From positions 434,001 to 498,000 of the forward strand of contig NZ_WMEX01000002.1 in assembly GCF_009856365.1 (NCBI RefSeq): 64,000 nucleotides of DNA, written 5' to 3'. A program made the translations under genes and the position numbers. This document shows positions 49,719-64,000 of the stretch, one piece after another; positions within the stretch are counted from its first letter, which is position 1, and each line of letters begins with the position of its first letter. This stretch comes from Vreelandella halophila (GTDB lineage: Bacteria; Pseudomonadota; Gammaproteobacteria; Pseudomonadales; Oleiphilaceae). Under the pieces are notes generated by a model that saw only the letters and a program-made list of their open reading frames with translations, searched no databases and had not been told where the DNA came from.

Positions 49719-51589
49719 CGGTAGAACCGGGACATTTCCTGGAGCACTTCCTTGATAGTGCGGGGATCCGGCCGGAACTCCGGCGCCGGATTGAGCTCAT
49801 CGTCCACGGTTTCCACCCGGCCTGAGGCATACTGAACGATCCGGTGATCGTCCAGTAACACCGCGTAGTCCATGTAACTGTGGGCAATGCTCCAGTCCCG
49901 TTCGCGCTTCTGGAACAGGCCGTTGCCGGTGGCATAGGTCTCCGGGGCCGTGGCGCCGCAGCCAAGGGCCCTGCCCATGAGCGTAGGGGCAACATCGAAG
50001 TTCTCAGTGCGGTACTCGATGGTTCGGCTGTCACGTCCCGGCCAGTGCACGATCATGGGGGTGTGCAGCTGGTACTGCCCGAAGTTGCTGCCGTGGCCCC
50101 AGTAATTCTTTCCGTATTCGTTGAACTCCTGGCCATGGTCCCCGGTGATCATGACGATGGTGGAATCCAGAAGGTCCCGGTCACGGAGGTCGGAAAGCAC
50201 GCGCCCGACCTGATTGTCCACGAAATGCAGGGTGGACTTGTAGTTGTTGCGCATCAGTTCCGGGTTGAAGTCCGGGCCCAGGGCCAGCTTGTTCACCGGA
50301 TCCCAGTATGGCTGGAATTTTACCGGATAATCGTCCGGCACCCGGTGGTTGTGTGGTGTGTCGTAGAACAGGAACCCGAAGAATGGCTCACCGGTGCTGG
50401 CCTCACTGTGCTGCGCAGTGAAGTCCAACCAGTCATTGGTGATGCGGGTGTCACGGTCCCAGGGTTTGTCCCCGGGTGTTTCCAGGCGCAGATCGTCCAC
50501 AGAAGCGAAGACGTTCTTGGTGAACGCGGGGCTGATCAGCGGCGCGGAGCTCAGGATCTTCATCCGGTAGTCCAGTTCCTGCATGCGCGTAATCATCACC
50601 GGCGGCTGTTTGGCGGTGGTGAACGCCTCCCAGTAGCCGCTGGGCAGTGAATAGAACAGGGTGAAAATGCCCGGCTTGGTGGCATTACCATTGCTGTAGT
50701 GATCCGTGAACTGCAGGCTCCTGCCCGCAAATTCATGGATGTTCGGCATCCACCGGGGATCGACCATGTCGCCGCGGGCGCCGTCTATCGCGATCACCAG
50801 CACGTTGGGGCGTTCGGCCGGCCTTTCACAGCTCAGGGGCTCGGTGGGGTAATCCAACTGGCCACCGCCGCCGCCAGTGGTGAGCGCGCTGGCAGCGCTC
50901 TGTTCCCGGATGGCCTCGGGGTCCACCAGTCCGTTCTTTTCCATGAAACGCTTGGCGGTTGCGCCGTAATACAGCGGCATGGCCCGGGTGATTGAGGTAA
51001 TGCGGCTGTCGTGGTTGGCATCCGCCCAGGCGTGCCAGCCGTGCACAACCAGCTGGCCGGCAAAGACGGTGGCAATACCGAGTGCCAGCCAGCGCCCCCG
51101 TGGCCGCCGCCGGAACAGGAAGATGCCCATGACCAGCTCCAGAAGCAGCAGCCCGAGCGTCGCGCCGCCGGCTATGGCCCACATCTGCCAGGGAAAGGCA
51201 AAGATCTGGGTGCCACCCTTAAGGGCCATATCCAGAACAAACCCGGAGAGATGGAAACGGAACTGGGCATAGGTGACGGTATCAATCAGCAGGAGCCCGA
51301 GAGCGCCCGTTGCATACACCGTCCCCAAAGCGATGAGCAGCCGGCGGCTGGGGATGAGTCCGATCACCAGCAGCGGCAGGCCGGCGACCAGTGCCAGCAG
51401 CGGGAACTGCGCCAGGTACAGGAAGGTGACATAGATGCCGGTGGTACCGTCTGGAATGGTGATCCAGGGCAGATAACGCAGGCCAACCAGAAGAGCCAGT
51501 ACGCCATTGGCTAACAGAAACCAGCCGGTCCAGCTCAGGCGTTGCCCGAGTTCCCTGAGTTGAGTTTTCAGCAAATCCCTTCCATCCAA
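49715..51589 (-). CDS. PbgA/YejM-like inner-membrane sulfatase-fold protein
   Basis: The 624-residue protein has about five membrane helices (to about residue 195) and a periplasmic sulfatase-fold domain (about 265-590). Motifs such as VIAIDGARGDMVDP, HYSNGNATKPGIFTLFYSLPS (given in part), ITGDHGQEFNEYG and NYWGHGSNFGQYQLHTPM match YejM/PbgA (LapC). That protein senses periplasmic lipopolysaccharide and controls LpxC degradation through LapB. It is usually non-enzymatic although it keeps the fold. No lap genes are beside it. Confidence 0.88.
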   Translation of the reverse strand: MDGRDLLKTQLRELGQRLSWTGWFLLANGVLALLVGLRYLPWITIPDGTTGIYVTFLYLAQFPLLALVAGLPLLVIGLIPSRRLLIALGTVYATGALGLLLIDTVTYAQFRFHLSGFVLDMALKGGTQIFAFPWQMWAIAGGATLGLLLLELVMGIFLFRRRPRGRWLALGIATVFAGQLVVHGWHAWADANHDSRITSITRAMPLYYGATAKRFMEKNGLVDPEAIREQSAASALTTGGGGGQLDYPTEPLSCERPAERPNVLVIAIDGARGDMVDPRWMPNIHEFAGRSLQFTDHYSNGNATKPGIFTLFYSLPSGYWEAFTTAKQPPVMITRMQELDYRMKILSSAPLISPAFTKNVFASVDDLRLETPGDKPWDRDTRITNDWLDFTAQHSEASTGEPFFGFLFYDTPHNHRVPDDYPVKFQPYWDPVNKLALGPDFNPELMRNNYKSTLHFVDNQVGRVLSDLRDRDLLDSTIVMITGDHGQEFNEYGKNYWGHGSNFGQYQLHTPMIVHWPGRDSRTIEYRTENFDVAPTLMGRALGCGATAPETYATGNGLFQKRERDWSIAHSYMDYAVLLDDHRIVQYASGRVETVDDELNPAPEFRPDPRTIKEVLQEMSRFYR

Positions 51590-51703: not shown

Positions 51704-51732
51704 TTGACCCGGTCATGGGCCCTTGGTAGGGT
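51704..51732 (+). promoter_or_regulatory. Sigma70-type promoter of the riboswitch-btuB operon
   Basis: TTGACC (51704-51709) and TAGGGT (51727-51732) are spaced by 17 bp, so transcription would start near 51738, directly before the conserved riboswitch core. The 114 bp between the sulfatase start and this promoter (51590-51703) hold no gene and should carry the divergent sulfatase promoter. Confidence 0.7.
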
Positions 51733-51737
51733 TCGAT

Positions 51738-51933
51738 CCACTTTCAGGTGTCCCTGCTGTGGCAGGGATGAAACGGGAAGCCGGTGAGCTGCATGACGCA
51801 GCGAGGCCGGCGCTGCCCCCGCAACGGTGATTGAGTCAAAGGCGGCCATCACGCCACTGTGCCGGAGAAGCATGGGAAGGCGGTCGCTGGGGATGCCATG
51901 GGCATCCGCTCATCAGCCCGTAGACCGGCCTGA
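51738..51933 (+). ncRNA. Cobalamin (adenosylcobalamin) riboswitch
   Basis: The leader has the conserved cobalamin-aptamer blocks in order: TTTCAGGTG, GATGAAACGGGAAGCCGGTG, GCTGCCCCCGCAACGGTGA, the B12-box region CACGCCACTGTGCCGG, GGGAAGGCGG and the 3' closing CATCAGCCCGTAGACCGGCC. It lies about 170 bp before the btuB start, with no gene between. A CGTTGC/GCAACG hairpin at 51947-51963 may belong to the expression platform. It should repress the whole downstream operon when cobalamin is plentiful. Confidence 0.95.
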
Positions 51934-52101
51934 AGGGATCGCCATGCGTTGCGGAGGGCAACGACAGGCCGGCCGGATCTTCCCCCGCGGCTCACGCTGC
52001 GCACTATTCAACCTCCCGCCGCCTGTCACCCTGAGTCTGCCCCCGCGACGCGTCCAGCAATGCTGTGCGGGGAAGCGCAGCAGGCAACAGGGAGTTACAC
52101 C

Positions 52102-53976
52102 ATGACCAACCGACAGGCCATTCTGCCTCTGGCAGCTGCAATCAGTCTTAGCGCATCCGTTTCTACGGCTCAGACTGCTGATGGGATCACTCAGGTTTCC
52201 TCGCTGGAACTTAATCCGCTTATCGTTACTTCTTCCCGGATGACAGAGACCGCCGACGAGGCGCTTTCGGCCGTTTCCGTCATCGATCGCGAAGAGATTG
52301 AGCAGCGCCAGCCCCAGTCAACGTTTGATCTTCTGCAGACCGAGCCAGGTGTCGACGTTGCCCGTAACGGTGGGCGTGGCGCCAACAACAGCGTTTTTCT
52401 GCGCGGCACCGAATCGGACCACACACTCGTCCTGATGGATGGTATGCGGGTGTCCTCGGCAACCACCGGCCAGTTCGCCTGGCGGGCCCTGCCGCCGGCC
52501 AGCGTCGAGCGCATCGAGATTGTTCGTGGTCCGCGCGCGAGCCTCTACGGCTCGGACGCCATCGGTGGCGTGGTTCAGGTGTTCTCCCGGGAGCCGGACG
52601 AGCCCTACCTGAGGCTGCGCGGCGGCAGTAACCGGACCCGCCAGGTTGAAGCGGGTTTCGGCGATGACGGCCCCGTGCGCTATGGCCTGAATGTTGGCTA
52701 TGAGGCGACGGACGGATTCCCTTCCCAGGAGGAAGGCGCCGGTGTTCAGGAGGATCATGGGTACCGGGGGCGGACCGTATCCGGCTTCGCCTCCGCACCC
52801 GTTGCCGCAGAAACCCGCCTGACCGGCCGTGTCTGGGCCAACAGCAGTGCCGTGGAGTTCTCCACCACCAACAGCCAGGGCGAGTTCGAGACTGGAGAGC
52901 AGGATACCCGCAACCTGAGTTCGCGGGTCTCGCTGGAACAGTCGCTGATGGCGGCCTGGGATCATGAGATCGGTGTGGGCTATTCGGAAGATCAGCTGGA
53001 GAACTTCGGGGCCCGCAGTGACGACGTCCATAACCTCATCCGCACCCGCCGTACCACCGTTGACTGGCGTCATGACGTGAGCGTCACCGAGAGCCAGACG
53101 GTGCAGTTCGGCGCGGATTTCCGCGAGGCGAATGTTCTCTCCGAGGACCGGATAACCGGGACCGAGGATTTTGACAAGACACTCGGCAACACTGGTGTCT
53201 ACGCGCTCTGGCGCGGCATGTTCGACGGCCTGGACACAGAAGCTTCCGTGCGCCACGACGACAACCGGGATTTCGGCAGCGCCACCACATGGCAACTGGC
53301 CGGAGGCATTCCTGTTGAGCAGGGTGTGCGCCTCAGAGCCTCCCTGGGCACGGCCTTCAAGGCGCCCAGTGCCAACGAACTCTACAGCCCAGGGTTCTTT
53401 GGCGGACTCTACGCTGGTAACCCTGATCTTGAACCCGAGGAGTCCCGCAGCGGTGAGCTCGGAGTGCGTTTCCGGGACCAGGGCGGCAGTGAACGGGCGG
53501 AGGTGAACCTGTTCGTGACCCGCATCGATGACCTGATTGCGTACCAGGGGCAGGATTTCCAGGCGGTGAACGTGGATGAGGCCGAGATTCAGGGGCTGGA
53601 GTTCATCTACGGTCGCTCCCTCCAGGACTGGCACCTGGATTTCAGTGCCACTTTCCAGAAGGCCGAGAATCGCACCACCGGGGAACGTCTGGCACGGCGG
53701 CCGGATGAGAAAGCAAGCCTGGTGCTTGGGCATGACCTCGACAACCGGACACGGCTCTCCGTGGAAGCGAAAGTCGCCGGTGAACGCCCGGATGGGAGTA
53801 CCACCCTGGCCGGCTACGGGGTCGTGAATCTGGCCGCAACCCGTCAGCTCCGCGAGGGCCTGAAGCTCGAGGCGCGCGTTGAGAACCTGACCAACAGTGA
53901 CTACCAGCTCGCGAACACCTACAACACGCGCGATCTCTCCGCGTTTGTCGGTATCCGCTGGGAGCCGTGGCAATGA
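52102..53976 (+). CDS. btuB: TonB-dependent outer-membrane receptor, BtuB-like
   Basis: The 624-residue receptor has a signal peptide (residues 1 to about 23), a plug domain (about 40-155; TFDLLQTEPGVDVARNGG, VFLRGTESDHTLVLMDGMRV, IVRGPRASLYGSDAIGG) and a beta-barrel. The riboswitch and length indicate a corrinoid receptor. GGGAG lies 8 bp before ATG. The frame stays open upstream to 51949, but that sequence belongs to the RNA leader. The stop overlaps the start of the CobN-like gene. The cargo could be cobalamin or a cobalt-free or incomplete corrinoid. Confidence 0.93.
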   Translation: MTNRQAILPLAAAISLSASVSTAQTADGITQVSSLELNPLIVTSSRMTETADEALSAVSVIDREEIEQRQPQSTFDLLQTEPGVDVARNGGRGANNSVFLRGTESDHTLVLMDGMRVSSATTGQFAWRALPPASVERIEIVRGPRASLYGSDAIGGVVQVFSREPDEPYLRLRGGSNRTRQVEAGFGDDGPVRYGLNVGYEATDGFPSQEEGAGVQEDHGYRGRTVSGFASAPVAAETRLTGRVWANSSAVEFSTTNSQGEFETGEQDTRNLSSRVSLEQSLMAAWDHEIGVGYSEDQLENFGARSDDVHNLIRTRRTTVDWRHDVSVTESQTVQFGADFREANVLSEDRITGTEDFDKTLGNTGVYALWRGMFDGLDTEASVRHDDNRDFGSATTWQLAGGIPVEQGVRLRASLGTAFKAPSANELYSPGFFGGLYAGNPDLEPEESRSGELGVRFRDQGGSERAEVNLFVTRIDDLIAYQGQDFQAVNVDEAEIQGLEFIYGRSLQDWHLDFSATFQKAENRTTGERLARRPDEKASLVLGHDLDNRTRLSVEAKVAGERPDGSTTLAGYGVVNLAATRQLREGLKLEARVENLTNSDYQLANTYNTRDLSAFVGIRWEPWQ

Positions 53977-56900
53977 AGCGCCTGCTGGTCGCATGCTTCA
54001 TCCTGGTGGCTGCACCGGCGCTTAACGCCGCCACCATCGTCGGCATCGTCTCGGACCGCTCCTCCGCCGAAATGGCGGCGGGCGCCGAGGAGCATTTGGC
54101 CGCGTTCCCGGAACACGAGATCGTGCTGCGCACGCCCGAGCAGCTGAAGGATCTTCCCGACGAACAGGTTACGGACCTCTGGAGCGACGCGGACGCGCTC
54201 ATCCTGGCCGCCGTTTTTGGCGAGGAGTCGGGCCGCATCCGCCGGCTGGTGCGTGACCAGGGGCCGGGGGCGGACGTGCCCATCATGGCCATGAACAGCA
54301 AGCGCGGCATAACCCGCCTTTCCCGGCTCGAGGGCGAGCGCGTGATGGCGGATCTCTCGGACAGGACCATCAACGAGATGGTCGCGAACCCTGAACCCGG
54401 CGAGGACCCCGCCGCGCACCTGGATGAACGCCGCAAGCAGTACCCGGAGCAGGCGGAATGGCTCACCGGCCGCGCCTTCTACCAGGGCCGCAGCCCCGAG
54501 CACATGGATGGCCTCTTCCGCTGGGCGCTGGCCCAGGCCGGGTATGACATCGAGGTGCCGGAACCCAAGCCCCGCGAGCCCATCCGGTACTACCGTAATG
54601 GCGAAGCCAGTGCCGATCCGGATTCCCTCAACCTGGAGGAAGGCCCGGCCGTGGCCCTGCTGGACCTGGATTCGGGCGACCGCCCCGGCGATCGGGACCT
54701 GCTGGACGCCGCCTGCGAGCAGATGGAAAAGCGCGGCATCCAGTGCTTCACCATCCTGGCCCGTTGGGGTGGGGCGAGCGTTGAAGCGGTGAAGACGCTG
54801 GAGGAACGGATCCAGCCGGCTACGCTGTCCGGCATCGTCAGCCTGCAGTATTTCACCGTTGGCGGTGGCGATGGCCGCGAAGCCGTGACCAAAGCGTTCA
54901 ATAACCTGGATGTGCCGGTCATCAAGGGGATCCGCATCTCCAAGCTCACCAAGCCCGAATGGTTGCTCTCCGATGAAGGGCTGCCGTGGGATTCGGTGCA
55001 TTACCAGCTCGCCATGCCCGAACTCCAGGGCATCAGCCAGCCCATGGTGCTGGCGGTGGCCGAGCCGCCGCGCATCGATGAGGAAACGGGCGTGGAACTC
55101 ACGCTGACCACGCCGGTGGCCGAGCGCGTCAACGCCCTCGCGAACCGGATGGATCGCTGGGTCACGCTCCAGACCAAGGAGAACTCGGACAAGCGTGTTG
55201 CGGTGGTCTACTACAATCACCCGCCGGGCCGGCAGAACATCGGCGCGGACAAGCTCAACGTCCCGGAATCCCTGTTCGAGATCCTGCAGCGGCTCAAGGC
55301 TGAGGGCTACAAGACGGGCGAGCTTCCCGAGTCCCCGGAAGCCCTGCTGGATGAGATCCAGGATCGTGGCGTGAACCTCCCGGACCAGCAGTCCGGACTG
55401 GAAGATCTGGCCGGCAAGGTCCCCTCCGTGAGTAAGGAAACCTATCTGGAACGGTTCAAGCAACTGCCGGAAGCAGTCCAGGCGGAGATGCAGCACGGCC
55501 CCGTGGGCTACCTCCACGCCCAGCTGAAGAACGCCGCCAACAACGGCCATACCAAGCTGGGTAACGACCTGCTCAAGAACGGCGTGAAGGACCTGCGCCA
55601 CATGCTGCGCAACTACGAGCACGACGCCACTCAGCGCGCTCTGGACCTGCTCGACCAGTACCAGACCGGCTGGCGCGCCGTTCTCCGCAATGAGCAGAAC
55701 TCGACGGAGAAGGTCACCAGCATCCGCGATGCCCTGATCCGCACCGGCATCCCCGGCCTCTCGGGCTGGGGCGAAGCGCCGGGCCGCTCCATGGTTCACG
55801 AAGGCGAGATGCTGTTCCCCGGCATCCATTTCGGTAACGTCTTCATCGGCCCGCAGCCGCCGCGTGGCTGGGAAGTGAGCGAGGAACTGCTGCACGCCAA
55901 CACCACCTTCCCGCCCACCCACCAGTACGTCGGCTTCTACCAGTGGCTGCGCAAGGACTTCAACGCGGACGCGCTCGTCTACCTGGGCCGCCACTCCACC
56001 CGCGAGTTCCTGCCCCGGCGCCGCGCGGGCCTGGCCGAGGACGACTACCCGGAGCTGCTGGGCAAGGATCTCCCGCTCATCTACCCCTACATCGTTGACG
56101 GGGTGGGCGAGGGCATCCAGGCCAAGCGCCGCGCCATGGGTGTAATGATCAGCCACCTCACGCCGCCGCTGGAAACCACCAAGCTCTACGACAACCTGCT
56201 GGAACTGCGCCAGCTCGTCGAAACCTGGGAGTCCTCCAACGATCCGGATTCCTCCTCGCGCGACCGTGCCGTGAAGGAACTGCGCAAGCGCCTCAGGGAA
56301 CTGGACATGGTCCAGGATATCGAGAAGGAACTCGCCGCCGAGCACCACCACGGTGAAGAAGAGCACAACGAGGAGGAAGGCGAAGAAGAGGGTAAGCACG
56401 AAGAGGGCGAGGTGCACGCCGAGACCGAACATCACCACAAGCATGAAGACGTCGAGGCGCCGGAAGAGGGCGGCGAGCACGCCCACGCCCATAAGCATGA
56501 GGACGGTGACGGGCATGGCCACGAGCACCACCACGACGAGGAAACCGTCCACCTGGAAGACGTGGATGACGAACTCCTGGTGCACGAGGTGGGCCACTAC
56601 CTGACCACCATGCAGGAAAGCTTCATGCCCCTCGGCCTGCACGTCTTCGGGCGTGACTGGGAACAGGAAGGCATCGAAACCATGCTCAACTCCATGGCCG
56701 GTGACGACGAGGAGCCGAAGCCCAAGTGGCGCGAGAAGCTCAAGGCCTCCCCCGGCGAAGAGATGGACCACCTCATGGCCGGCCTCGACGGCCGCTTCGT
56801 CCCGCCGGGCGAGGGCAACGACCCCGTGCGAACCCCGGCGGTACTGCCCACCGGCCGCAACTTCCACGCCCTGTCCAGCGACCTGGTCCCGACCCGCGTC

Positions 56901-58517
56901 GCCTGGTCCCTGGGCGCGGAAATGGCCAAGGACGCCCGCAACAAGGGTGACCCCAAGGCCGAGGGCAGCGAGGCCATCGTCCTCTGGGCCTCCGATACCG
57001 TCCGTGACGAGGGCGTGATGATCGCCTTCGGCCTGGACATGCTCGGCATCAAGCCCAAGTGGAATTCCCGTGGCATCGTGGAAGGCCTCGAGCGCATGCC
57101 GCTGGATGAGCGCAACCGCCGCCGCGACGCACTCTTCACCACCTCCGGCCTGTTCCGGGACCTCTACGAGGACCAGCTGGTGCTGCTCGACCAGGCCTCG
57201 CGCCTGGCCCTGGATGGCGCCTACAAGACCATCATGAACAAGCACCCGCAGCTGGACCGCGCCCTGGAAGCCGCCATGGAACCGCTGCCCGAGGAAATGC
57301 GCGACCCCGGCAGTGAAAGCCTCGCGAAGAATGACGTGGCCGCCCGCTGGGTCGCCGATACCAAGGCCATGATGGCCAACGGCGCCAAGGCCCAAAAAGC
57401 CGGCTCGGATGCGGCCCTGCGCGTCTTCGGCACTGCCCCTGGCTCCTACGGCGCCGGCGTCAACCGCCTCGCGGACCGCTCCGGCGCCTGGGACGACCGC
57501 GGCAAGGTCGCCGACGCCTACACCCGCCGCATGGGCTACGCCTTCGGCGGCGACAAAGAGGGAGGCCGCCCTGCGCACGATGCCTTCAAGGATCGTCTGG
57601 ATGACGTCGGCCGCACCTATCTCGGCCGCGCCAGCCACGTCTACGGCCTGCTCGACAACGACGACGGCTTCGACTTCCAGGGCGGGCTCTCCATGGCCGT
57701 GGAACACGAAACCGGCGAGGCCCCGACCAACCGCGTGCTCATGCATGCGGATCCGGACAACCCCAGGGTCGAATCCCTGCAGCAGGCCCTGCTCAGCGAG
57801 CTGCGTGGCCAGAACCTGAACCCGCAGTGGATCAAACCGCTGATGGAGCAGGGTTACGCCGGCGCACGCACCATGTCCGCGGACTTCCTCGACAACCTCT
57901 GGGGCTGGCAGGTGACGAGCCCGGACGTGGTGAAATCCGCCGTCTGGGACGACATCAACGAGGTCTACTTCGAGGACCGTCACAACCTGGGTCTCGATAA
58001 GTTCCTCGAGAAGGACCACAACGTCCACGTCAAAACCCACATGCAGGCGATCACACTGGTGGCCGCGCATCGCGGCTTCTGGAAGCCCGACGAGGAAACC
58101 CTCAAGAAACTGCGCCAGGAGTTCGCCCAACTCGTCGTCGAGAACGGCCTGCCCGGCAGCGGCCACACCCGCCCGGACCACCCCACCATGCAGTGGGTGG
58201 CCGAGAACCTGAGCGATGCCGAGCTGAAGAAAGACTTCAGGGCCGTCCTCGATGCCGCGCGCATGCAATCGCCGGAGTCCGGCAAGGCCCAGCCGGTGAG
58301 CATGCGCGAAGTCACTATGAAACAGAAACCCAAGCAGCAGGAAGCCGAAGAGAAGGCCCAGCAGCAATCGGAAAAGAAAACGGAACAAACGTCCGAGCAA
58401 CCCGATGCGCAAAAGGCCTCGGCCGAGGGCGGACAGGTCCTGCTTCCGTGGTTCATCGGCGGTGGTGTCCTGCTGCTTCTCGGTGGTGGTGTCGTCGCCG
58501 GTCGACGCCTCTCATAA
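53973..58517 (+). CDS. Exported, membrane-anchored CobN-like chelatase with His-rich insert
   Basis: The 1514-residue protein belongs to the CobN/BchH/HmuS superfamily but is longer than the roughly 1200-1300 residues of cytoplasmic CobN. It has a Sec signal peptide (ACFILVAAPALNA), CobN-type core segments (WASDTVRDEGVMIAFGLDML, then FTTSGLFRD), a Glu/Asp-rich insert with about 20 histidines at residues 790-866, a charged Gln/Lys/Glu linker (about 1440-1485) and a C-terminal membrane helix (about 1490-1510) ending RRLS. The usual HGTxEfLPGK active-site region reads GRHSTREFLPRR around His674. ATG 53973 overlaps the btuB stop. Topology implies a periplasmic enzyme held in the inner membrane. 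Cobalt insertion, cobalt removal or another tetrapyrrole reaction are all possible. Confidence 0.85.
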   Translation: MKRLLVACFILVAAPALNAATIVGIVSDRSSAEMAAGAEEHLAAFPEHEIVLRTPEQLKDLPDEQVTDLWSDADALILAAVFGEESGRIRRLVRDQGPGADVPIMAMNSKRGITRLSRLEGERVMADLSDRTINEMVANPEPGEDPAAHLDERRKQYPEQAEWLTGRAFYQGRSPEHMDGLFRWALAQAGYDIEVPEPKPREPIRYYRNGEASADPDSLNLEEGPAVALLDLDSGDRPGDRDLLDAACEQMEKRGIQCFTILARWGGASVEAVKTLEERIQPATLSGIVSLQYFTVGGGDGREAVTKAFNNLDVPVIKGIRISKLTKPEWLLSDEGLPWDSVHYQLAMPELQGISQPMVLAVAEPPRIDEETGVELTLTTPVAERVNALANRMDRWVTLQTKENSDKRVAVVYYNHPPGRQNIGADKLNVPESLFEILQRLKAEGYKTGELPESPEALLDEIQDRGVNLPDQQSGLEDLAGKVPSVSKETYLERFKQLPEAVQAEMQHGPVGYLHAQLKNAANNGHTKLGNDLLKNGVKDLRHMLRNYEHDATQRALDLLDQYQTGWRAVLRNEQNSTEKVTSIRDALIRTGIPGLSGWGEAPGRSMVHEGEMLFPGIHFGNVFIGPQPPRGWEVSEELLHANTTFPPTHQYVGFYQWLRKDFNADALVYLGRHSTREFLPRRRAGLAEDDYPELLGKDLPLIYPYIVDGVGEGIQAKRRAMGVMISHLTPPLETTKLYDNLLELRQLVETWESSNDPDSSSRDRAVKELRKRLRELDMVQDIEKELAAEHHHGEEEHNEEEGEEEGKHEEGEVHAETEHHHKHEDVEAPEEGGEHAHAHKHEDGDGHGHEHHHDEETVHLEDVDDELLVHEVGHYLTTMQESFMPLGLHVFGRDWEQEGIETMLNSMAGDDEEPKPKWREKLKASPGEEMDHLMAGLDGRFVPPGEGNDPVRTPAVLPTGRNFHALSSDLVPTRVAWSLGAEMAKDARNKGDPKAEGSEAIVLWASDTVRDEGVMIAFGLDMLGIKPKWNSRGIVEGLERMPLDERNRRRDALFTTSGLFRDLYEDQLVLLDQASRLALDGAYKTIMNKHPQLDRALEAAMEPLPEEMRDPGSESLAKNDVAARWVADTKAMMANGAKAQKAGSDAALRVFGTAPGSYGAGVNRLADRSGAWDDRGKVADAYTRRMGYAFGGDKEGGRPAHDAFKDRLDDVGRTYLGRASHVYGLLDNDDGFDFQGGLSMAVEHETGEAPTNRVLMHADPDNPRVESLQQALLSELRGQNLNPQWIKPLMEQGYAGARTMSADFLDNLWGWQVTSPDVVKSAVWDDINEVYFEDRHNLGLDKFLEKDHNVHVKTHMQAITLVAAHRGFWKPDEETLKKLRQEFAQLVVENGLPGSGHTRPDHPTMQWVAENLSDAELKKDFRAVLDAARMQSPESGKAQPVSMREVTMKQKPKQQEAEEKAQQQSEKKTEQTSEQPDAQKASAEGGQVLLPWFIGGGVLLLLGGGVVAGRRLS

Positions 58518-58536
58518 GGCCTGAAGGAGGCAAGCA

Positions 58537-58983
58537 ATGTTTACATCCGCAACCCTCGACATCATGGACTCCATGGTGAGCTTCCTCCTGGAGCCGGTGA
58601 TCATCGCGCTGCTGGCGCTGATCGCCCTGGCGCTCTGGGAAACTGGCCTGGCCATCGGTGAACGCACCGGCGGCCTGCGCCGGATGATCGAACGCGGTGA
58701 TACGGAATCCCTCGCCGCCCGCGCCCAGCGCCGCATTGACCGCGCCGACCTGATCGCTCGTGTCGGCCCCATGATGGGCCTCATGGGCACCCTGATCCCG
58801 CTCGGCCCGGGCCTGGCCGCGCTCGGGCGCGGTGAGCTCGACGTGCTGGCGGAGGCGGTGACCGTGGCCTTCAACACCACCGTCCTCGGCCTGCTTGCCG
58901 GCATCATCGGCTTCCTGCTCGGGCGCATGCGCCGCCGCTGGTACGATGGCGCCATGGCCCAGCTGGAGGAGGCCGCGGCATGA
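58537..58983 (+). CDS. MotA/TolQ/ExbB-like proton-channel protein
   Basis: The 148-residue protein has three predicted helices (about 15-38, 75-100 and 108-130) and the family motif ARVGPMMGLMGTLIPLGPGL, equivalent to the second helix of ExbB/TolQ. GAAGGAGG precedes ATG. It is shorter than ExbB, with a reduced N-terminal and cytoplasmic region. It is coupled to the DUF2149 gene by a 4-bp overlap and lies 19 bp after the CobN-like gene, so it may energise that protein or the receptor. Proton conduction is inferred from the family. Confidence 0.88.
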   Translation: MFTSATLDIMDSMVSFLLEPVIIALLALIALALWETGLAIGERTGGLRRMIERGDTESLAARAQRRIDRADLIARVGPMMGLMGTLIPLGPGLAALGRGELDVLAEAVTVAFNTTVLGLLAGIIGFLLGRMRRRWYDGAMAQLEEAAA

Positions 58984-59282
58984 GTGTGCCCGAGTACCGC
59001 CGCAGCCGTTTCGACATCACCGACGAGGACCCCATGGGCCCGCTGGCGAACCTGGCTGATATCATGTTGGTATTCGCCGTTGGCCTGATGGTGGCGCTGG
59101 CCGCCTCCGAAAGGGCCAACGATCCGCAGCAGAGCGGCGTGGACGTGAAGGCGGGCCGCGAGATGCCGGAACTGCCCGAGGGCGCGGGCGAATCCGGTGA
59201 AGGCTTCCAGCCCATGGGCCAGGTCTACCGGGACCCGGAAACCGGGCGCATGATCATGATCGACAAGGGGAACAGCCAGTGA
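58980..59282 (+). CDS. DUF2149 protein, ExbD-like
   Basis: The 100-residue protein has a short cytoplasmic N-terminus, a single membrane helix about residues 22-43 (PLANLADIMLVFAVGLMVAL) and a polar C-terminal tail. An Asp at the start of the helix is placed as in ExbD/TolR (PLIDVMLVLL-like), where it carries protons with ExbB. DUF2149 proteins occur beside CobN-like and MotA/ExbB-like genes in other genomes, including haem-acquisition loci with HmuS. Role here is inferred from position and the Asp. Confidence 0.84.
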   Translation: MSVPEYRRSRFDITDEDPMGPLANLADIMLVFAVGLMVALAASERANDPQQSGVDVKAGREMPELPEGAGESGEGFQPMGQVYRDPETGRMIMIDKGNSQ

Positions 59283-60169
59283 TCCGGATGCTGCACCGAC
59301 TCACCGCCGTCGCCCTTCTCTTTCTGGTCGCCACCACGACGGCCCACGCGGAAGTCTGTGCCACGGATGATCGTGGGAAGGAGGTCTGCCTGGACAGCCC
59401 CGCTGAACGCATCATCAGCCTCTCGCCCGGCGCCACTGAGCTGCTCTTCGCCGCCGGCGCCGGGGACGACGTGGTGGGTGTGGTCAACTACAGCGACTAC
59501 CCCGAGGCCGCCAGGGAACTGCCCATCATCGGCAGCCTCAAGCGGCTGGATGTTGAGCGAATCCTGAGCCTGTCGCCGGATCTGGTGATTGTCTGGGTGA
59601 CCGGTAACCCCAAGGAACAGACCGAGCGGCTGGAAGAGCTGGACCTCACCCTGTACTACCTCGAGCCCAGGGATTTCGAGGGCATCGCCAGCGCCATCGA
59701 GCGCCTCTCGACCCTGGCGGATACCAAAGAGGTGGGCTACAGGGAAGCCGATCGGTTCCGCGCCGGGATCGAGTCGCTGCGTGATGAATACGGTGATGCC
59801 GATCCGGTGCCAGTGTTCTACCAGGTCTGGGATCAGCCGCTGATGACGGTTAATGGCGAACACTTCATCCACGAAGTGATTGAACTGTGCGGTGGCGAAA
59901 ACATCTACGCGGAGCTCGATCGGCTGGTGCCACGCATCGACCGGGAATCCGTTCTGGCCGGCAACCCGGAGGCGATCGTCGCCGGCGGTATGGGCGAGCA
60001 GAACCGGGACTGGTTGCAGGAATGGAAACAGTACGGCTCGCTGACCGCCACCGAGCGGGGCAACCTTTTCTTCGTGCCGCCGTCCACCCTGCAGCGGCCT
60101 ACACCACGCCTGCTGGAAGGCGGCGCCACCCTGTGCAAGAAACTGGAGACCGCCCGTGAACGCCGCTGA
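59279..60169 (+). CDS. btuF: Cobalamin ABC transporter substrate-binding protein BtuF
   Basis: The 296-residue periplasmic protein has a cleavable signal peptide (ending TTTAHA) without a lipobox and two lobes joined by a long helix (YREADRFRAGIESLRDEYG). Segments RIISLSPGATELLFAAGAG and VVGVVNYSDYPEAARELP match BtuF. GTG 59279 overlaps the DUF2149 stop; ATG 59288 is an alternative. The gene overlaps btuC by 14 bp. Confidence 0.92.
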   Translation: MIRMLHRLTAVALLFLVATTTAHAEVCATDDRGKEVCLDSPAERIISLSPGATELLFAAGAGDDVVGVVNYSDYPEAARELPIIGSLKRLDVERILSLSPDLVIVWVTGNPKEQTERLEELDLTLYYLEPRDFEGIASAIERLSTLADTKEVGYREADRFRAGIESLRDEYGDADPVPVFYQVWDQPLMTVNGEHFIHEVIELCGGENIYAELDRLVPRIDRESVLAGNPEAIVAGGMGEQNRDWLQEWKQYGSLTATERGNLFFVPPSTLQRPTPRLLEGGATLCKKLETARERR

Positions 60170-61178
60170 GGCCGTCGCACACCGGGCCAGCGCCTCCATG
60201 GCCATTTCCGCCTGGCGTCCCTTTCTGCCGCTGGTGTGGTTGGCATTGCTGGGGCTGCTGGCCCTAATGATGGCCGTCGCCATCGGCAGCGTGACCATCG
60301 CGCCGGGCGAGTTCTGGGCGGTGATCCTGGGCGAGGGCAGTGAACTGCACCGCACCCTCATCTTTGAGCTGCGCGCGCCGCGCGCACTGGCCGGGTTCGC
60401 CACCGGGGGCCTGCTGGCGGTGGCCGGGGCGCTCATGCAGATCCTGCTGCGCAACCCGCTGGCGGACCCCTACGTGCTCGGTGTCTCCGGCGGTGCCTCG
60501 GTGGGTGCGCTCGCCGCCATGCTTGCCGGAACCGGCACCGCCGTGCTCTCCGGTTCCGCCTTCGCGGGCGCGCTGCTGTCCACCTTCCTGGTCTTCGGCC
60601 TCGCCCACGGCACCGGCAGCTGGACCCCCGCGCGGCTGCTGCTTACCGGCATCGTGGTCGCCTCCGGCTGGGGCGCGGTGATCACACTGATGCTGGCCAT
60701 CGGCCCGACGGACAAACTCCCGGGCATGCTCTACTGGCTCATGGGCGACCTCACCTACGCCCAGACCCCCTGGCCGGCGCTGATCACGCTGGCGCTGGTC
60801 TGCTTGCTGGTCATTCCCCTCGGGCGCAGCCTCAACGTCCTCGCACGTGGCCCGCTGCAGGCGGCGGCGCTGGGCGTGGCCGTGCGCCCGCTGGAATGGA
60901 CCATCTACGTGCTCGCCAGCCTGCTCACCGCACTGGCCGTGACCACTGCTGGGAGCATCGGCTTTGTGGGGCTGGTGGTGCCGCACATGCTCCGGCTGGT
61001 GCTGGGCAACGACCAGCGCCTCATCCTGCCGGCCTGCGCGCTGGCCGGGGGCGCACTGCTCACGCTGGCGGACACGCTCGCGCGCATCGTCATCGCCCCC
61101 GAACAGCTCCCCGTGGGTGTGATCACCGCCCTGCTGGGCGTGCCGACCTTCCTCGTGCTGCTGTACCGGAGTCGCTGA
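60156..61178 (+). CDS. btuC: Cobalamin ABC transporter permease BtuC
   Basis: The 340-residue protein is full length for FecCD permeases with about ten helices. It has ELRAPRALAGFATGG, LLRNPLADPYVLGVSGGAS, LLTGIVVASGWGAVI, YWLMGDL and GSIGFVGLVVPHMLRL. It carries the N-terminal helix missing in the paralogue at 42849. It is coupled to btuF and btuD. Confidence 0.94.
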   Translation: MNAAEAVAHRASASMAISAWRPFLPLVWLALLGLLALMMAVAIGSVTIAPGEFWAVILGEGSELHRTLIFELRAPRALAGFATGGLLAVAGALMQILLRNPLADPYVLGVSGGASVGALAAMLAGTGTAVLSGSAFAGALLSTFLVFGLAHGTGSWTPARLLLTGIVVASGWGAVITLMLAIGPTDKLPGMLYWLMGDLTYAQTPWPALITLALVCLLVIPLGRSLNVLARGPLQAAALGVAVRPLEWTIYVLASLLTALAVTTAGSIGFVGLVVPHMLRLVLGNDQRLILPACALAGGALLTLADTLARIVIAPEQLPVGVITALLGVPTFLVLLYRSR

Positions 61179-61942
61179 TGGCCGTGCTTGAAACCCGGGA
61201 ACTCATCATCGACATCCCCGAGCGCGCGGACGGCCGCCCGCTCAGCCTGCGCATGGAACCGGGCCAGACCTGGGGCATCCTCGGCCCCAATGGCGCCGGC
61301 AAGAGCACCCTGCTGCACACCCTCGGCGGCCTCAACCGCCCGAGGAGCGGGGAAGTGCGGATCGACGACACCCCATTGCGCCAGATGCGGCGCAGCACCA
61401 TCGCCCGGCAGCTCGGCCTCGTCTTCCAGGAACGCCAGGACGGCTTCCCCGCCACCGTCCTCGAAACCGCCCTGATCGGAAGGCACCCCTTTTTGTCCCC
61501 CTGGCAGCTCGAAGGCGGCGACGACCTCGAAATGGCCGAAAAGGCCCTGGAACGCCTGGAACTCAGCGACCTGGCGGATCGTTCCGTCAGTACCCTATCC
61601 GGTGGCGAACGCCAGCGCGTCGCCCTGGCCACGGCCCTGACCCAGAGCCCCAGCATCTGGCTCGCCGACGAACCCACCAACCACCTGGACCTCCGCCACC
61701 AGGTGGCCGTGATGGAACTGCTCTCGGAACAGGCCAGGGCAGGGCACACTGTCGTCATGTGCCTCCACGACCTCAACCTCGCCGCCCGCTGGTGCGACCA
61801 CCTCCTGCTCCTGTACCCGGACGGCGAAGCCTGCTGGGGCGAGGCCGAAAGCATGCTCAAACCCAAAGCCCTCGAACAGCTCTACGGCCAGCCCCTCACG
61901 TGGGCGGAGGTGGATGGGGCTCCCGTATTCGTGCCGTCATGA
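61178..61942 (+). CDS. btuD: Cobalamin ABC transporter ATPase BtuD
   Basis: The 254-residue ATPase has Walker A GPNGAGKSTLL, signature LSGGERQRVALA, Walker B IWLADEPTNHLD and MCLHDLNLAARW. The ATG overlaps the btuC stop (TGATG). It completes the BtuFCD importer in the riboswitch operon. A REP pair 27 bp after its stop marks the end of this tightly packed block. Confidence 0.94.
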   Translation: MAVLETRELIIDIPERADGRPLSLRMEPGQTWGILGPNGAGKSTLLHTLGGLNRPRSGEVRIDDTPLRQMRRSTIARQLGLVFQERQDGFPATVLETALIGRHPFLSPWQLEGGDDLEMAEKALERLELSDLADRSVSTLSGGERQRVALATALTQSPSIWLADEPTNHLDLRHQVAVMELLSEQARAGHTVVMCLHDLNLAARWCDHLLLLYPDGEACWGEAESMLKPKALEQLYGQPLTWAEVDGAPVFVPS

Positions 61943-62081: not shown

Positions 62082-63395
62082 ATGAACACCCAGACCATCA
62101 CAGGCACCACCGCCGCCGCCATGATCACAGCCCCGGGCTCTGGCCACGGCAAATCCATGGTCACCGCCGCCCTGGCACGCCTCCACAAAAACGAAGGCCG
62201 CAACGTCCGCGTCTTCAAGCACGGCCCGGACTACCTCGACCCCATGGTCCTCGAAAGAGCCTCCGGCAATCCGGTTTACCAGGTCCACGGCTGGATGACC
62301 GGCATGGACGAAGTCCGCTGGCGCCTCGCCGAAGCCGCCCAGACCGCTGACCTGATACTGGTCGAAGGTTCCATGGGTCTCTTCGACGGCGACCCCAGCA
62401 CCGCCGACATGGCCGTCGCCTGCGGCATCCCCGCGCTACCGGTCATCGGCGCCAACGCCATGGGCCAGACCTTCGGCGCGATTGCTCTGGGCCTCGCCCG
62501 CTACCGCGATGATCTGGAAGTGAAGGAAGTCATCGCCAACCGCACCGGCAGCGGCTACCACGCCCACCTGTGCAGGGAGAGCCTGCCCGAAGACATCAGC
62601 CTCCTCGGCGCCATCCCGAGGAATGAGGCCTTCGACATCCCGGACCGCCACCTCGGCATCGTCCAGGCCGACGAAATCACCGACCTGGATGAACAACTCG
62701 ATGCCGCCGCCGAGGTCCTCAAGGAAGCCGGCCTCGACCAGCTCCCGGCCCAGGTCACTCTGGAAGCAACAACACCCGAACAACCGCCAAGGCTCCTCGA
62801 AGGCACCACCATCGCCATCGCCAAAGACGCCGCCTTCGCCTTCATCTACCGGGCCAACACGGAACTCCTGGAAGCCATGGGCGCCCCCCTCAAGTTCTTC
62901 TCCCCACTAACGGACAAAGAACTCCCGAACGCCGACGCCCTCTGGCTCCCCGGCGGCTACCCCGAACTCCACGGCCAGACCATCGCCGACAACAAAGAAA
63001 TGAAAGCCGCCATCCAGGCCCACCACCAGGCCGGCAAACCCATCTACGCCGAATGCGGCGGCCTGATGGCCTGCACCGAAACCATGATCGACCCGGAAGA
63101 CGGCACCGAACACAGCCTCTATGCCCTCATGCCCGGCAAAGTCTCCATGGCCCCCAAGCTCAAGGCACTGGGCATCCAGTCCCTGAACACCGACAATGGC
63201 GAACTCCGCGGCCACACCTTCCACCACTCCGAACTCGAAACGGAACGGGAGCCGGCCATGAGAACGACCAAGAAAAACGGCAGCGAAGGGGAACGCGTGT
63301 TCAAACAGGGCTCACTCACAGCGAGCTACTTCCACGGCTACTTCCCCACGGCCCCCAAACTGGTTGCGGAACTTTTCAAAGGCCAGGAGCAATAA
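62082..63395 (+). CDS. cobB: Cobyrinate/hydrogenobyrinate a,c-diamide synthase
   Basis: The 437-residue enzyme amidates the a and c side chains of cobyrinic acid (CbiA) or hydrogenobyrinic acid (CobB) using glutamine and ATP. The N-terminal dethiobiotin-synthetase-like domain has the P-loop variant APGSGHGKSMV, then FKHGPDYLDPMVL and LVEGSMGLFDG. The C-terminal glutamine amidotransferase domain has the nucleophile Cys in IYAECGGLMACTETM and a late His (GHTFHHSE). Which corrin it uses depends on whether the pathway is aerobic or anaerobic, which the window does not settle. Confidence 0.92.
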   Translation: MNTQTITGTTAAAMITAPGSGHGKSMVTAALARLHKNEGRNVRVFKHGPDYLDPMVLERASGNPVYQVHGWMTGMDEVRWRLAEAAQTADLILVEGSMGLFDGDPSTADMAVACGIPALPVIGANAMGQTFGAIALGLARYRDDLEVKEVIANRTGSGYHAHLCRESLPEDISLLGAIPRNEAFDIPDRHLGIVQADEITDLDEQLDAAAEVLKEAGLDQLPAQVTLEATTPEQPPRLLEGTTIAIAKDAAFAFIYRANTELLEAMGAPLKFFSPLTDKELPNADALWLPGGYPELHGQTIADNKEMKAAIQAHHQAGKPIYAECGGLMACTETMIDPEDGTEHSLYALMPGKVSMAPKLKALGIQSLNTDNGELRGHTFHHSELETEREPAMRTTKKNGSEGERVFKQGSLTASYFHGYFPTAPKLVAELFKGQEQ

Positions 63396-63397
63396 CG

Positions 63398-64000
63398 ATG
63401 CGAGAGAACGCAAAAGACCCGGAACGCCATGCCCAGCGCATGGCCCGCAAGAAAAAGGTCATGGAAGAACGCATGGCCAACGCCCAGAAAGACCATGGCG
63501 TCCTCCTCGTGAACACCGGCAACGGCAAGGGCAAAAGCTCTTCCGGCTTCGGCATGGTTGCCCGCAGCCTCGGCCACGGTTTGCAGGTCGGCATCGTCCA
63601 GTTCATCAAGGGCAAGATGCAGACCGGCGAGGAACGCTTCTTCCGGGACCAGGCCAACGTCGACTACCACGTCATGGGCGACGGCTACACCTGGGACACC
63701 CAGGACCGTGAAAAGGACGTTGAAGCCGCCGAGAACGCCTGGAAGGAAGCCGCGCGCATGCTCTCCGACGAGCGCTACAGCCTGGTGCTGCTCGACGAAC
63801 TCAACATCGCCCTGCGCTACGAATACCTCGACCTCGACCGCGTCCTGGATGACCTCCAGAACCGCCCCGAGATGCAGCACGTCGTGGTCACCGGCCGGAA
63901 CGCGCCGAAAGAGCTGATCGAGCTGGCGGACACCGTGACCGACATGACCATCGTCAAGCACGCGTTCAAGGATCTCGGCGTCCGTGCCCAGAAAGGCGTC
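63398..64000 (+). CDS. cobO: Corrinoid adenosyltransferase (3' end just beyond window)
   Basis: The frame from ATG 63398 is open to the window end (201 codons), about the full length of CobO/BtuR, so only the last few residues are missing. It has an N-terminal helix rich in Arg and Lys, the P-loop NTGNGKGKSSSGFGM (relatives usually have GKGKTT), VGIVQFIKGKMQTGE, LVLLDELNIALRY and VVVTGRNAPKELIELAD. It transfers the adenosyl group from ATP to cob(I)alamin or cobyrinate diamide, directly after the CobB step. It begins 2 bp after the cobB stop. Confidence 0.94.
   Translation, partial: MRENAKDPERHAQRMARKKKVMEERMANAQKDHGVLLVNTGNGKGKSSSGFGMVARSLGHGLQVGIVQFIKGKMQTGEERFFRDQANVDYHVMGDGYTWDTQDREKDVEAAENAWKEAARMLSDERYSLVLLDELNIALRYEYLDLDRVLDDLQNRPEMQHVVVTGRNAPKELIELADTVTDMTIVKHAFKDLGVRAQKGV

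What the first reader, a model, noticed from the sequence alone, without database searches (positions are those of the whole stretch)
51704..61942. Riboswitch-led corrinoid operon joining a TonB receptor, an exported CobN-like chelatase, ExbB/ExbD-like subunits and BtuFCD
Seen: a cobalamin riboswitch, then seven genes with mostly overlapping start and stop codons. The CobN-like protein has a signal peptide and a C-terminal anchor, so its large domain should be periplasmic, between receptor and importer. Known: cytoplasmic CobN works with the AAA+ proteins CobS and CobT; neither is in the window. In Bacteroidetes the CobN-like HmuS, with MotA/ExbB-like and DUF2149-like partners, acts in haem acquisition. 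Inferred: this is a corrinoid-dedicated version in which proton-motive force, not ATP, drives a metal or ring reaction on an imported corrinoid before BtuFCD uptake. That would be a distinct salvage step.
Basis: partly seen in the sequence, partly recalled or inferred. Interest (0 to 1): 0.92.

Follow-up and report, generated by a model that had tools for sequence, protein, structure and literature searches.

The report
Exported cobalt-inserting enzyme for vitamin B12
A salt-loving bacterium and its relatives appear to export the enzyme that normally puts cobalt into vitamin B12 inside the cell, which would mean that part of B12 assembly happens outside the inner membrane; this is inferred from genomes and untested.

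Summary
In detail: a cobalamin riboswitch (110 bits) leads TonB receptor, CobN-like, ExbB-like, DUF2149, BtuF, BtuC and BtuD; cobB, cobO and cobQ follow. The CobN-like protein belongs to a conserved exported clade, apart from cytosolic CobN. Signal-type N-termini occur in 77 of 81 rows. A C-terminal anchor and the ExbB/DUF2149 pair occur together (54 loci) or are both absent (19, all Marinobacter). At the second active-site position it has Asp, as 8 of 10 CobN rows do, where HmuS has His.

The whole genome changes the reading. It also holds a late-insertion (CobG, CobI) B12 ring pathway, but no CobT, no CbiK, and no class-I chelatase except this exported one. In all nine surveyed CobG-type carriers no second class-I chelatase and no full CbiX match was listed. 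In 14 of 14 such clusters an ABC-2 export pair lies among the ring genes, against 0 of 13 other B12 clusters and 0 of 40 carriers without ring synthesis (CobN locus only).

Best explanation: cobalt is inserted in the periplasm, into a metal-free corrin that ring-makers export and re-import and other carriers scavenge. Transport direction, chemistry and proton coupling are inferred. A divergent CbiX/SirB-like protein, and no BtuFCD found near clusters outside Halospina relatives, are the main weaknesses.

The parts
51729..51947 (+). cobalamin riboswitch aptamer (RF00174)
   Evidence: 110.3 bits
52102..53976 (+). TonB-dependent receptor, BtuB-like
   Evidence: start ATG at 52102
53973..58517 (+). 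exported CobN-like class-I chelatase, 1514 aa
   Evidence: PF02514; only PF02514 protein found in the genome; exported clade
53973..54029 (+). predicted signal peptide (about 19 residues)
   Evidence: read from the sequence; conserved hydrophobic N-terminus in 77 of 81 family rows
55992..55994 (+). His674, equivalent of HmuS His538, invariant
   Evidence: 82 of 82 rows; alignment to HmuS
56343..56552 (+). His/Glu-rich insertion, about residues 791-860
   Evidence: 20 His in an 84-residue segment; 19 of 82 rows have 8 or more His there
57663..57665 (+). Asp1231, where HmuS has His1209
   Evidence: 82 of 82 exported rows Asp
58437..58499 (+). C-terminal transmembrane anchor, positive charges on its far (cytosolic) side
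   Evidence: charge bias in 53 of 54
58537..58983 (+). ExbB/MotA-like subunit, 148 aa
   Evidence: PF01618; T85 and T115 in 68 of 69; MotA 6ysl E 2.6e-4
58980..59282 (+). DUF2149, ExbD-like single-span subunit
   Evidence: PF09919; Asp in the transmembrane span in 67 of 67
59279..60169 (+). BtuF-like periplasmic binding protein
60156..61178 (+). BtuC-like permease
61178..61942 (+). BtuD-like ATPase
62082..63395 (+). CobB, (hydrogeno)byrinic acid a,c-diamide synthase
   Evidence: NF002204 396.8 bits, over its cut-off
63398..64000 (+). CobO adenosyltransferase (runs a few bases past the window); cobQ follows outside the window

Best explanation
The CobN-like protein is a periplasmic cobalt-inserting chelatase. 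In this organism and other halophiles with the CobG-type pathway, the corrin ring is made metal-free in the cytosol and exported, probably by the ABC-2 pair encoded among the ring genes. Cobalt is inserted in the periplasm by the exported protein, anchored to and probably energised by the ExbB-like/DUF2149 channel instead of the AAA+ CobS/CobT motor. BtuFCD then brings the cobalt corrin back for CobB, CobO and CobQ. In relatives without ring synthesis the same enzyme would metalate metal-free early corrins taken up by the TonB receptor. Shown by sequence: export-type N-terminus and anchor, conserved operon, riboswitch, sole class-I chelatase in this genome, co-occurrence of the ABC-2 pair with late-type ring synthesis. 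Inferred: substrate, direction of transport, cobalt insertion, proton coupling.
For: Sole class-I chelatase found in G000, with no CobT and no CbiK; the genome is 96.9% complete. Ring genes of late type: CobG 267.2 bits over cut-off 234.8, CobI (precorrin-2 type) and CobH over cut-offs. In a survey of 80 genome handles CobG exceeds its cut-off in 9; all 9 carry the exported protein and CobH, and the listed PF02514 pieces of each lie in that one ORF (the piece list is capped). CbiX: no match in 4 of the 9, only 20.7-27.2 bits in 5. CobT and CbiK were searched for only four of the nine, the window's genus. ABC-2 ATPase and permease beside cbiD and cobG/cobH in 14 of 14 genomes (the nine and five more Thioalkalivibrio loci), against 0 of 13 other B12 clusters within the stretches fetched and 0 of 40 CobH-negative named carriers, searched within the CobN locus only. 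In G018 a CobW-like gene and a cytosolic CobN occupy the place before cobG where the exported type has cbiD and the ABC-2 pair. CobW-, CbtAB- and ChlI/VWA-like genes: in 0 of 22 exported+CobG loci, but CobW in 5, CbtAB in 4 and a ChlI-type ATPase in 7 of 10 contrast loci from 8 genomes (loci only, not whole genomes). Asp1231 in 82 of 82. His-rich insertion in 19 of 82. CobB lies in the locus of 27 of 40 CobH-negative named carriers, which suggests early corrins as substrates.
Against: No experiment. A divergent CbiX/SirB-like protein (36.6 bits to PF01903) is encoded in the genome and could in principle insert cobalt early. In Thioalkalivibrio, Thiohalospira and Thiohalorhabdus no BtuFCD was found in the stretches fetched, and whole genomes were not searched for it, so the return route is open there. 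By the tree the protein sits on the HmuS side (a de-chelatase), not with CobN. Marinobacter lacks the anchor and the ExbB/DUF2149 pair. At least six carriers outside the nine have a second PF02514 protein or copy. Homologues of the ABC-2 permease are common and the substrate is unknown. The CobG-type carriers are about four genera of halophiles and may have shared one operon by transfer; the Fisher values ignore relatedness. His at 1231 is not a clean porphyrin mark: of three BchH-type rows one has Asn, and 2 of 10 CobN rows have neither Asp nor His.
Confidence: 0.5

Rival explanations
1. Salvage only: the exported protein metalates (or re-metalates) metal-free corrins taken up from outside, before BtuFCD import, and the cell's own ring pathway gets cobalt in some other way.
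For: 48 of 61 exported-type handles lack CobH; TonB receptor and BtuFCD lie in the operon; CobB is in the locus of 27 of 40 CobH-negative named carriers.
Against: Leaves nine CobG-type genomes without any recognised late cobalt chelatase in the matches listed and does not explain the ABC-2 pair inside the ring operon.
Confidence: 0.25
2. De-chelatase like HmuS: it strips cobalt or another metal from imported tetrapyrroles, as a metal source.
For: Same exported, ExbB/DUF2149-linked side of the tree as HmuS; His674 conserved; HmuS shown to be a de-chelatase (PMC12583661, abstract, passages and sections 13, 14, 21 part 1).
Against: HmuS His1209 is Asp here in 82 of 82. In carriers without ring synthesis, a B12-repressed enzyme that destroys scarce corrinoid would defeat its own regulation (inference). 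That cobalt is very hard to remove from a corrin is recalled, not searched.
Confidence: 0.1
3. Energised corrinoid relay with no metal chemistry: the chelatase fold binds corrinoids in the periplasm and the ExbB/DUF2149 channel drives hand-over from receptor to BtuF.
For: Position between TonB receptor and BtuFCD; anchor and channel pair found together or both absent.
Against: Active-site residues invariant in 82 of 82; His-rich insertion in 19 of 82 suggests metal handling; does not explain the missing chelatase in ring-makers.
Confidence: 0.1
4. Early insertion by the divergent CbiX/SirB-like protein supplies cobalt to the ring pathway, and the exported protein is unrelated to de novo synthesis.
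For: The protein is in G000; weak CbiX matches in 5 of the 9 CobG-type genomes.
Against: It lies beside a weak siderophore-synthetase match (52 bits) and a panE-type gene, with no cob gene seen in the 8 kb fetched. Among its best 120 homologues many are named sirohydrochlorin chelatase in Halomonas-type bacteria, and the five Halomonas-type genomes surveyed (L080, L083, L088, L099, L102) lack CobH. 4 of 9 CobG-type genomes have no CbiX match. CobG/CobI-type ring genes imply the metal-free route. A cbiX-annotated enzyme of Paracoccus is the siroheme ferrochelatase (PMC4063343, abstract and passages).
Confidence: 0.1

Closest known systems
CobN of the cobaltochelatase CobNST (late cobalt insertion)
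   Same: PF02514 domain; conserved chelatase His; Asp at 1231 as in 8 of 10 CobN rows; same metal-free ring genes around it in CobG-type genomes
   Different: Exported and anchored, no CobT in the window's genome, no CobW/CbtAB/ChlI-type genes in its loci, separate clade, below the cut-off of every CobN model it matched
HmuS haem de-chelatase of Bacteroidota (hmuYRSTUV)
   Same: Exported, membrane-linked CobN-like protein in an operon with TonB receptor, MotA/ExbB-like and DUF2149 genes (PMC12583661; PMC10434189 passages; PMC13227078 passages)
   Different: No HmuY and no gene between chelatase and ExbB here; B12 riboswitch; His-rich rather than Met-rich insertion; Asp for His1209
[quoted passage not shown]
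   Different: Genetic tests that I saw are of B. fragilis haem use; Rodionov 2003 itself is not held, so how much of the B12-linked set it covered is unknown to me
CobN of Geobacter (Trichlorobacter) lovleyi plasmid pSZ77
   Same: CobN-like without CobS/CobT, beside TonB, ExbB, ExbD and DUF2149 genes and B12 genes (PMC3403914 passages: 'exact biochemical role is unknown')
   Different: Separate lineage in the tree; an additional DUF2162 gene
Periplasmic CbiK-type cobaltochelatases (Methylobacterium homologue beside a TonB receptor; Desulfovibrio CbiK-P)
   Same: Cobalt chelatase placed in the periplasm next to TonB-dependent uptake (PMC2773004 passages; Desulfovibrio CbiK-P recalled)
   Different: Unrelated class-II fold acting on sirohydrochlorin (recalled)

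Membership tests
CobN (CobNST) | PF02514 chelatase domain | tested here: met
   E 4.6e-236
CobN (CobNST) | scores over a CobN equivalog cut-off | tested here: not met
   best 598.9 bits of 1619 needed; TIGR02257 483.5 of 822
CobN (CobNST) | cytosolic, no signal peptide | tested here: not met
   hydrophobic N-terminus in 77 of 81 family rows; by a hydropathy script, not a dedicated predictor
CobN (CobNST) | CobT partner in the genome | tested here: not met
   PF06213 not found in G000 and its 4 congeners, one of them 68% complete; CobS was not searched
CobN (CobNST) | same clade as known CobN | tested here: not met
HmuS | exported and membrane-anchored | tested here: met
   (sequence criteria)
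HmuS | operon with MotA/ExbB-like and DUF2149 genes | tested here: met
   both in 53 of the 73 loci with near-complete chelatase ORFs, one more is cut after ExbB
HmuS | HmuY and HmuT genes in the operon | tested here: not met
   every gene between the riboswitch and cobB is assigned to another family; the rest of the genome was not searched
HmuS | LSLDHxxEFMGG motif with His1209 | tested here: not met
   Asp in 82 of 82
HmuS | methionine-rich insertion in domain IV | tested here: not met
   His/Glu-rich segment instead; whether it is the same site is not shown
HmuS | Met79/His254 haem ligands | not tested
   not examined
HmuS | removes iron from haem | not testable with these tools
   needs assay
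ExbB/ExbD/MotAB proton channel | channel family domain and conserved Thr in two spans | tested here: met
   PF01618 40.6 bits; T85, T115 in 68 of 69; MotA match E 2.6e-4; that these Thr matter in ExbB is recalled
ExbB/ExbD/MotAB proton channel | ExbD/MotB-type single span with Asp | tested here: inconclusive
   Asp in 67 of 67 DUF2149, but no significant PDB sequence match; likeness to ExbD is recalled
Late (CobG) B12 pathway | CobG, CobH, CobI, CobJ, CobK, CobL, CobM in the genome | tested here: met
   CobD and nucleotide-loop genes not searched

The most novel reading that the evidence does not exclude
A B12 biosynthesis route with a periplasmic middle step: metal-free corrin made in the cytosol is exported by a dedicated ABC-2 pair, receives cobalt from an exported CobN driven by an ExbB/DUF2149 proton channel, and is re-imported, so that neither cytosolic CobNST, CobW nor a cobalt importer is needed.
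Probability: 0.38. Interest if true: 0.94.

Novelty: new variant of a known kind. Interest (0 to 1): 0.8.

Why it matters
It would move a central step of vitamin B12 assembly across a membrane, give a function to the exported CobN-like/ExbB/DUF2149 module outside haem use, and supply a chelatase for CobG-type genomes that otherwise have none recognised. It makes the question of the power source of class-I chelatases testable (proton force against AAA+ ATPase), and bears on who shares which corrin intermediates in the sea and in salt lakes.

Tried and rejected
Filing it as an ordinary CobN: rejected on location, partners, equivalog scores and tree. Filing it as HmuS: rejected on the His1209 position, operon and regulation. 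Early guess that the weak CbiX match was HemH: wrong; Pfam shows a CbiX/SirB-like protein. CobG as a clean marker: 4 of the 8 over-cut-off matches in the class sample (L185-L188) lie on contigs where no reference cob gene was matched; the one scanned, L185, is NirA nitrite reductase (872.8 bits); the other three were not scanned. Structure prediction of residues 560-1440 gave mean pLDDT 56.7 and pTM 0.35, too poor to use, so no fold search was run and the second job was not spent. DUF2149 profile against PDB: only one chance-level match, E 1.8. Script flag: L072 and L073 were printed as 'pair present, outside'; I count them as inside because the pair lies between cbiD and cobG and the locus ends soon after. 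Rows dropped: 7 short ORFs in the anchor table; 8 short ORFs and one without an anchor in the signal count; L202 and ORFs under 1000 residues in the tree and alignment.

Papers: PMC12583661 outline, sections 13, 14 and 21 part 1, passages; PMC6460266 outline and passages; PMC10434189, PMC10846266, PMC7689651, PMC3403914, PMC8620254, PMC545781, PMC13227078, PMC9227772, PMC2773004, PMC4063343: passages; PMC10206600: abstract and outline. Others: search listings only. Rodionov 2003 is not held and was not read. That the export route and the sole-chelatase reading are not in print rests on searches only.


Full report
1. What is there. The window holds a cobalamin riboswitch at 51729-51947 (110.3 bits) followed by a BtuB-like TonB receptor, a 1514-residue CobN-like protein, an ExbB-like protein, DUF2149 and BtuF-, BtuC- and BtuD-like proteins. 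cobB, cobO and cobQ continue the run.

2. The protein is exported, as far as sequence can tell. In 90 loci examined, 82 had near-complete ORFs and 81 could be anchored on the family profile. In 77 of these 81 a strongly hydrophobic 12-mer (mean Kyte-Doolittle at least 1.9) precedes the mature domain; the other four reach 1.76-1.85. Of 15 cytosolic-type CobN and BchH rows, 14 stay below 1.9 in their first 60 residues (two of these lack their true N-terminus); one CobN (G309) reaches 2.05. The C-terminal anchor carries its positive charges on the far side in 53 of 54, as expected for a periplasmic body. These are script measures, not a signal-peptide predictor.

3. Anchor and channel go together. 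Of 80 named loci, 54 have both the C-terminal anchor and the ExbB/DUF2149 genes (in L031 the contig ends after ExbB), 19 have neither, none is discordant and 7 short ORFs were dropped. All 19 are Marinobacter, so this is probably one loss. DUF2149 has an Asp in its only span in 67 of 67, and the ExbB-like protein has Thr85 and Thr115 in 68 of 69; its profile finds MotA in the PDB at E 2.6e-4.

4. Relationships. In a 44-row tree (quick method) the 26 exported B12-linked proteins are one side of a branch (SH-aLRT 100). With them, on the side away from cytosolic CobN and BchH (99), are HmuS of Aureibacter and the DUF2149-linked proteins of Trichlorobacter and Comamonadaceae and a Pseudoalteromonas protein; these four are long branches whose place is unsure. 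The catalytic-loop His674 is invariant, 82 of 82. At the position of HmuS His1209 the exported family has Asp, 82 of 82. Aureibacter HmuS has His; of three BchH-type rows two have His and one Asn; of ten CobN rows eight have Asp, one Gly and one Thr (an eleventh has a gap). A segment with 8 or more His occurs in 19 of 82: four Halospina relatives, twelve Thioalkalivibrio, and three MAGs, one of them Aquisalimonas.

5. Regulation. A riboswitch-like hit lies upstream in 70 of 80 named loci; 7 of the other 10 hold under 3 kb of upstream DNA (model trained on these loci). Rfam confirmed 13 of 18 loci submitted, with one more about 7 kb away and four without.

6. The rest of the genome. The window's genome (G000, 96.9% complete) carries a second cluster on contig C15, led by a riboswitch-like hit: cbiD, an ABC ATPase and ABC-2 permease, cobH, cobI, cobJ, cobK, cobL, cobM and cobG. 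CobG, CobI (precorrin-2 type), CobH and CbiD exceed their NCBIfam cut-offs, which marks the route in which cobalt enters late. Yet the genome shows a single PF02514 protein, the exported one, no CobT and no CbiK.

7. Survey. I chose 80 genome handles: 61 with the exported protein (two are the same genome) and 19 for contrast. CobH was found in 13 of the 61 exported handles. CobG exceeded its cut-off in 9 of 80, all of them exported-type with CobH: G000, three Halospina relatives, two Thioalkalivibrio, and G126, G158 and G273. CbiX gives no match in four and 20.7-27.2 bits in five. CobT and CbiK were searched only for the window's genus among the nine. The other four CobH-positive carriers (Duganella, Zoogloea) have CbiX domains beside their ring genes. 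Carriers outside the nine with a second PF02514 ORF or copy include G333, G335, G338, G339, G340 and G348. In an even sample of 274 Gammaproteobacteria, 10 have the exported type, G000 among them (a 285-residue fragment in G141 is undecided), and 8 exceed the CobG cut-off; 4 of those 8 are in cob clusters and all 4 are exported-type.

8. The export pair. In 14 of 14 CobG-type exported genomes (the nine, and Thioalkalivibrio L034, L037, L072, L073 and L097, judged by similarity to the window genome's CobG) an ABC-2 ATPase and permease sit between cbiD and cobG or cobH (two were flagged outside by the script, see Tried and rejected). None of 13 other B12 clusters (cytosolic CobN or CbiX type) shows the pair in the stretches fetched; a very divergent exporter would have been missed. 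None of 40 CobH-negative named carriers has it within the CobN locus, and 27 of those 40 have CobB there. In Thioalkalivibrio, strains with and without ring synthesis can be compared: L041 and L061 have ring genes and the pair; L033, L069 and L070, whose genomes lack CobH, keep riboswitch, TonB, chelatase, ExbB, DUF2149, CobO and CobB and show neither (read to about 8-10 kb past the chelatase). So the pair follows ring synthesis, while the chelatase does not. Among the best 120 permease homologues the first 50 have 56-95% identity, and their named members are Thioalkalivibrio, Thiohalospira, Thiohalorhabdus and Aquisalimonas; the rest lie at 45-54%.

9. Contrast in partners. Azospirillum shows the order cbtB-cbtA-cobW-cobN-cobG-cobH-cobI, and G018, of the window's own family, has a CobW-like gene and a cytosolic CobN directly before cobG. 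CobW-, CbtAB- and ChlI/VWA-like genes were in none of 22 exported+CobG loci (these include overlapping stretches of the same genomes) and none of 73 other exported loci, but in several of 10 contrast loci from 8 genomes.

10. Reading. One function fits both settings: cobalt insertion into a metal-free corrin in the periplasm. Ring-makers would export their own; the rest would use corrins from others, for which CobB in their loci is a hint. Removal of cobalt fits badly, because many carriers cannot make the ring and the riboswitch should turn the operon on when B12 is short. The enzymology paper on CobNST finds the cytosolic cobalt gradient unfavourable without CobW (PMC10206600, abstract); a periplasmic step would avoid that problem (inference).

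11. What speaks against it. Nothing was assayed. The divergent CbiX/SirB-like protein cannot be excluded as a chelatase. BtuFCD was not found in the fetched stretches of the non-Halospina ring-makers. The tree puts the protein nearer a de-chelatase. Marinobacter manages without the channel. Homologues of this ABC-2 permease are widespread. The fold model failed. Fisher values take no account of kinship; the CobG-type carriers represent about four genera.

12. Prior work. HmuS (PMC12583661) and BtuS (PMC6460266) are the known exported relatives; the G. lovleyi plasmid CobN without CobST was noted in 2012 as of unknown role (PMC3403914, passages). My searches (listed in Tried and rejected) found no report of an exported chelatase as sole cobalt chelatase, nor of an ABC-2 pair in the ring operon, but the library lacks most subscription papers, including Rodionov 2003.

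Noticed in passing
L019:3348-7077 (own genome, contig C15): A second riboswitch-like hit, pointing the other way, leads a TonB receptor and a PepSY_TM protein next to the ring cluster; possibly cobalt or cobalt-chelate uptake into the periplasm.
   Followed up: partly
L125:3090-4118 (own genome C15): Divergent 343-residue CbiX/SirB-like protein beside a weak siderophore-synthetase match and a panE-type gene; many close homologues in Halomonas-type bacteria.
   Followed up: partly
L061:9308-9862: A PduO-type cobalamin adenosyltransferase (PF01923) lies between the TonB receptor and the exported CobN in Thioalkalivibrio.
   Followed up: no
L110:8224-13297 (Comamonadaceae plasmid): ExbB-like, DUF2149 and an exported CobN-like gene with no TonB receptor or B12 gene annotated around them; substrate unknown.
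   Followed up: no
window 49715-51589 (-): DUF3413 plus sulfatase protein, related to the LPS regulator YejM/PbgA (267 bits, cut-off 825), upstream of the operon.
   Followed up: no
L162:15344-16150 (-): Nitroreductase-family protein in the B12 cluster of G273 (Thiohalorhabdus-type), perhaps BluB (BluB is my guess).
   Followed up: no
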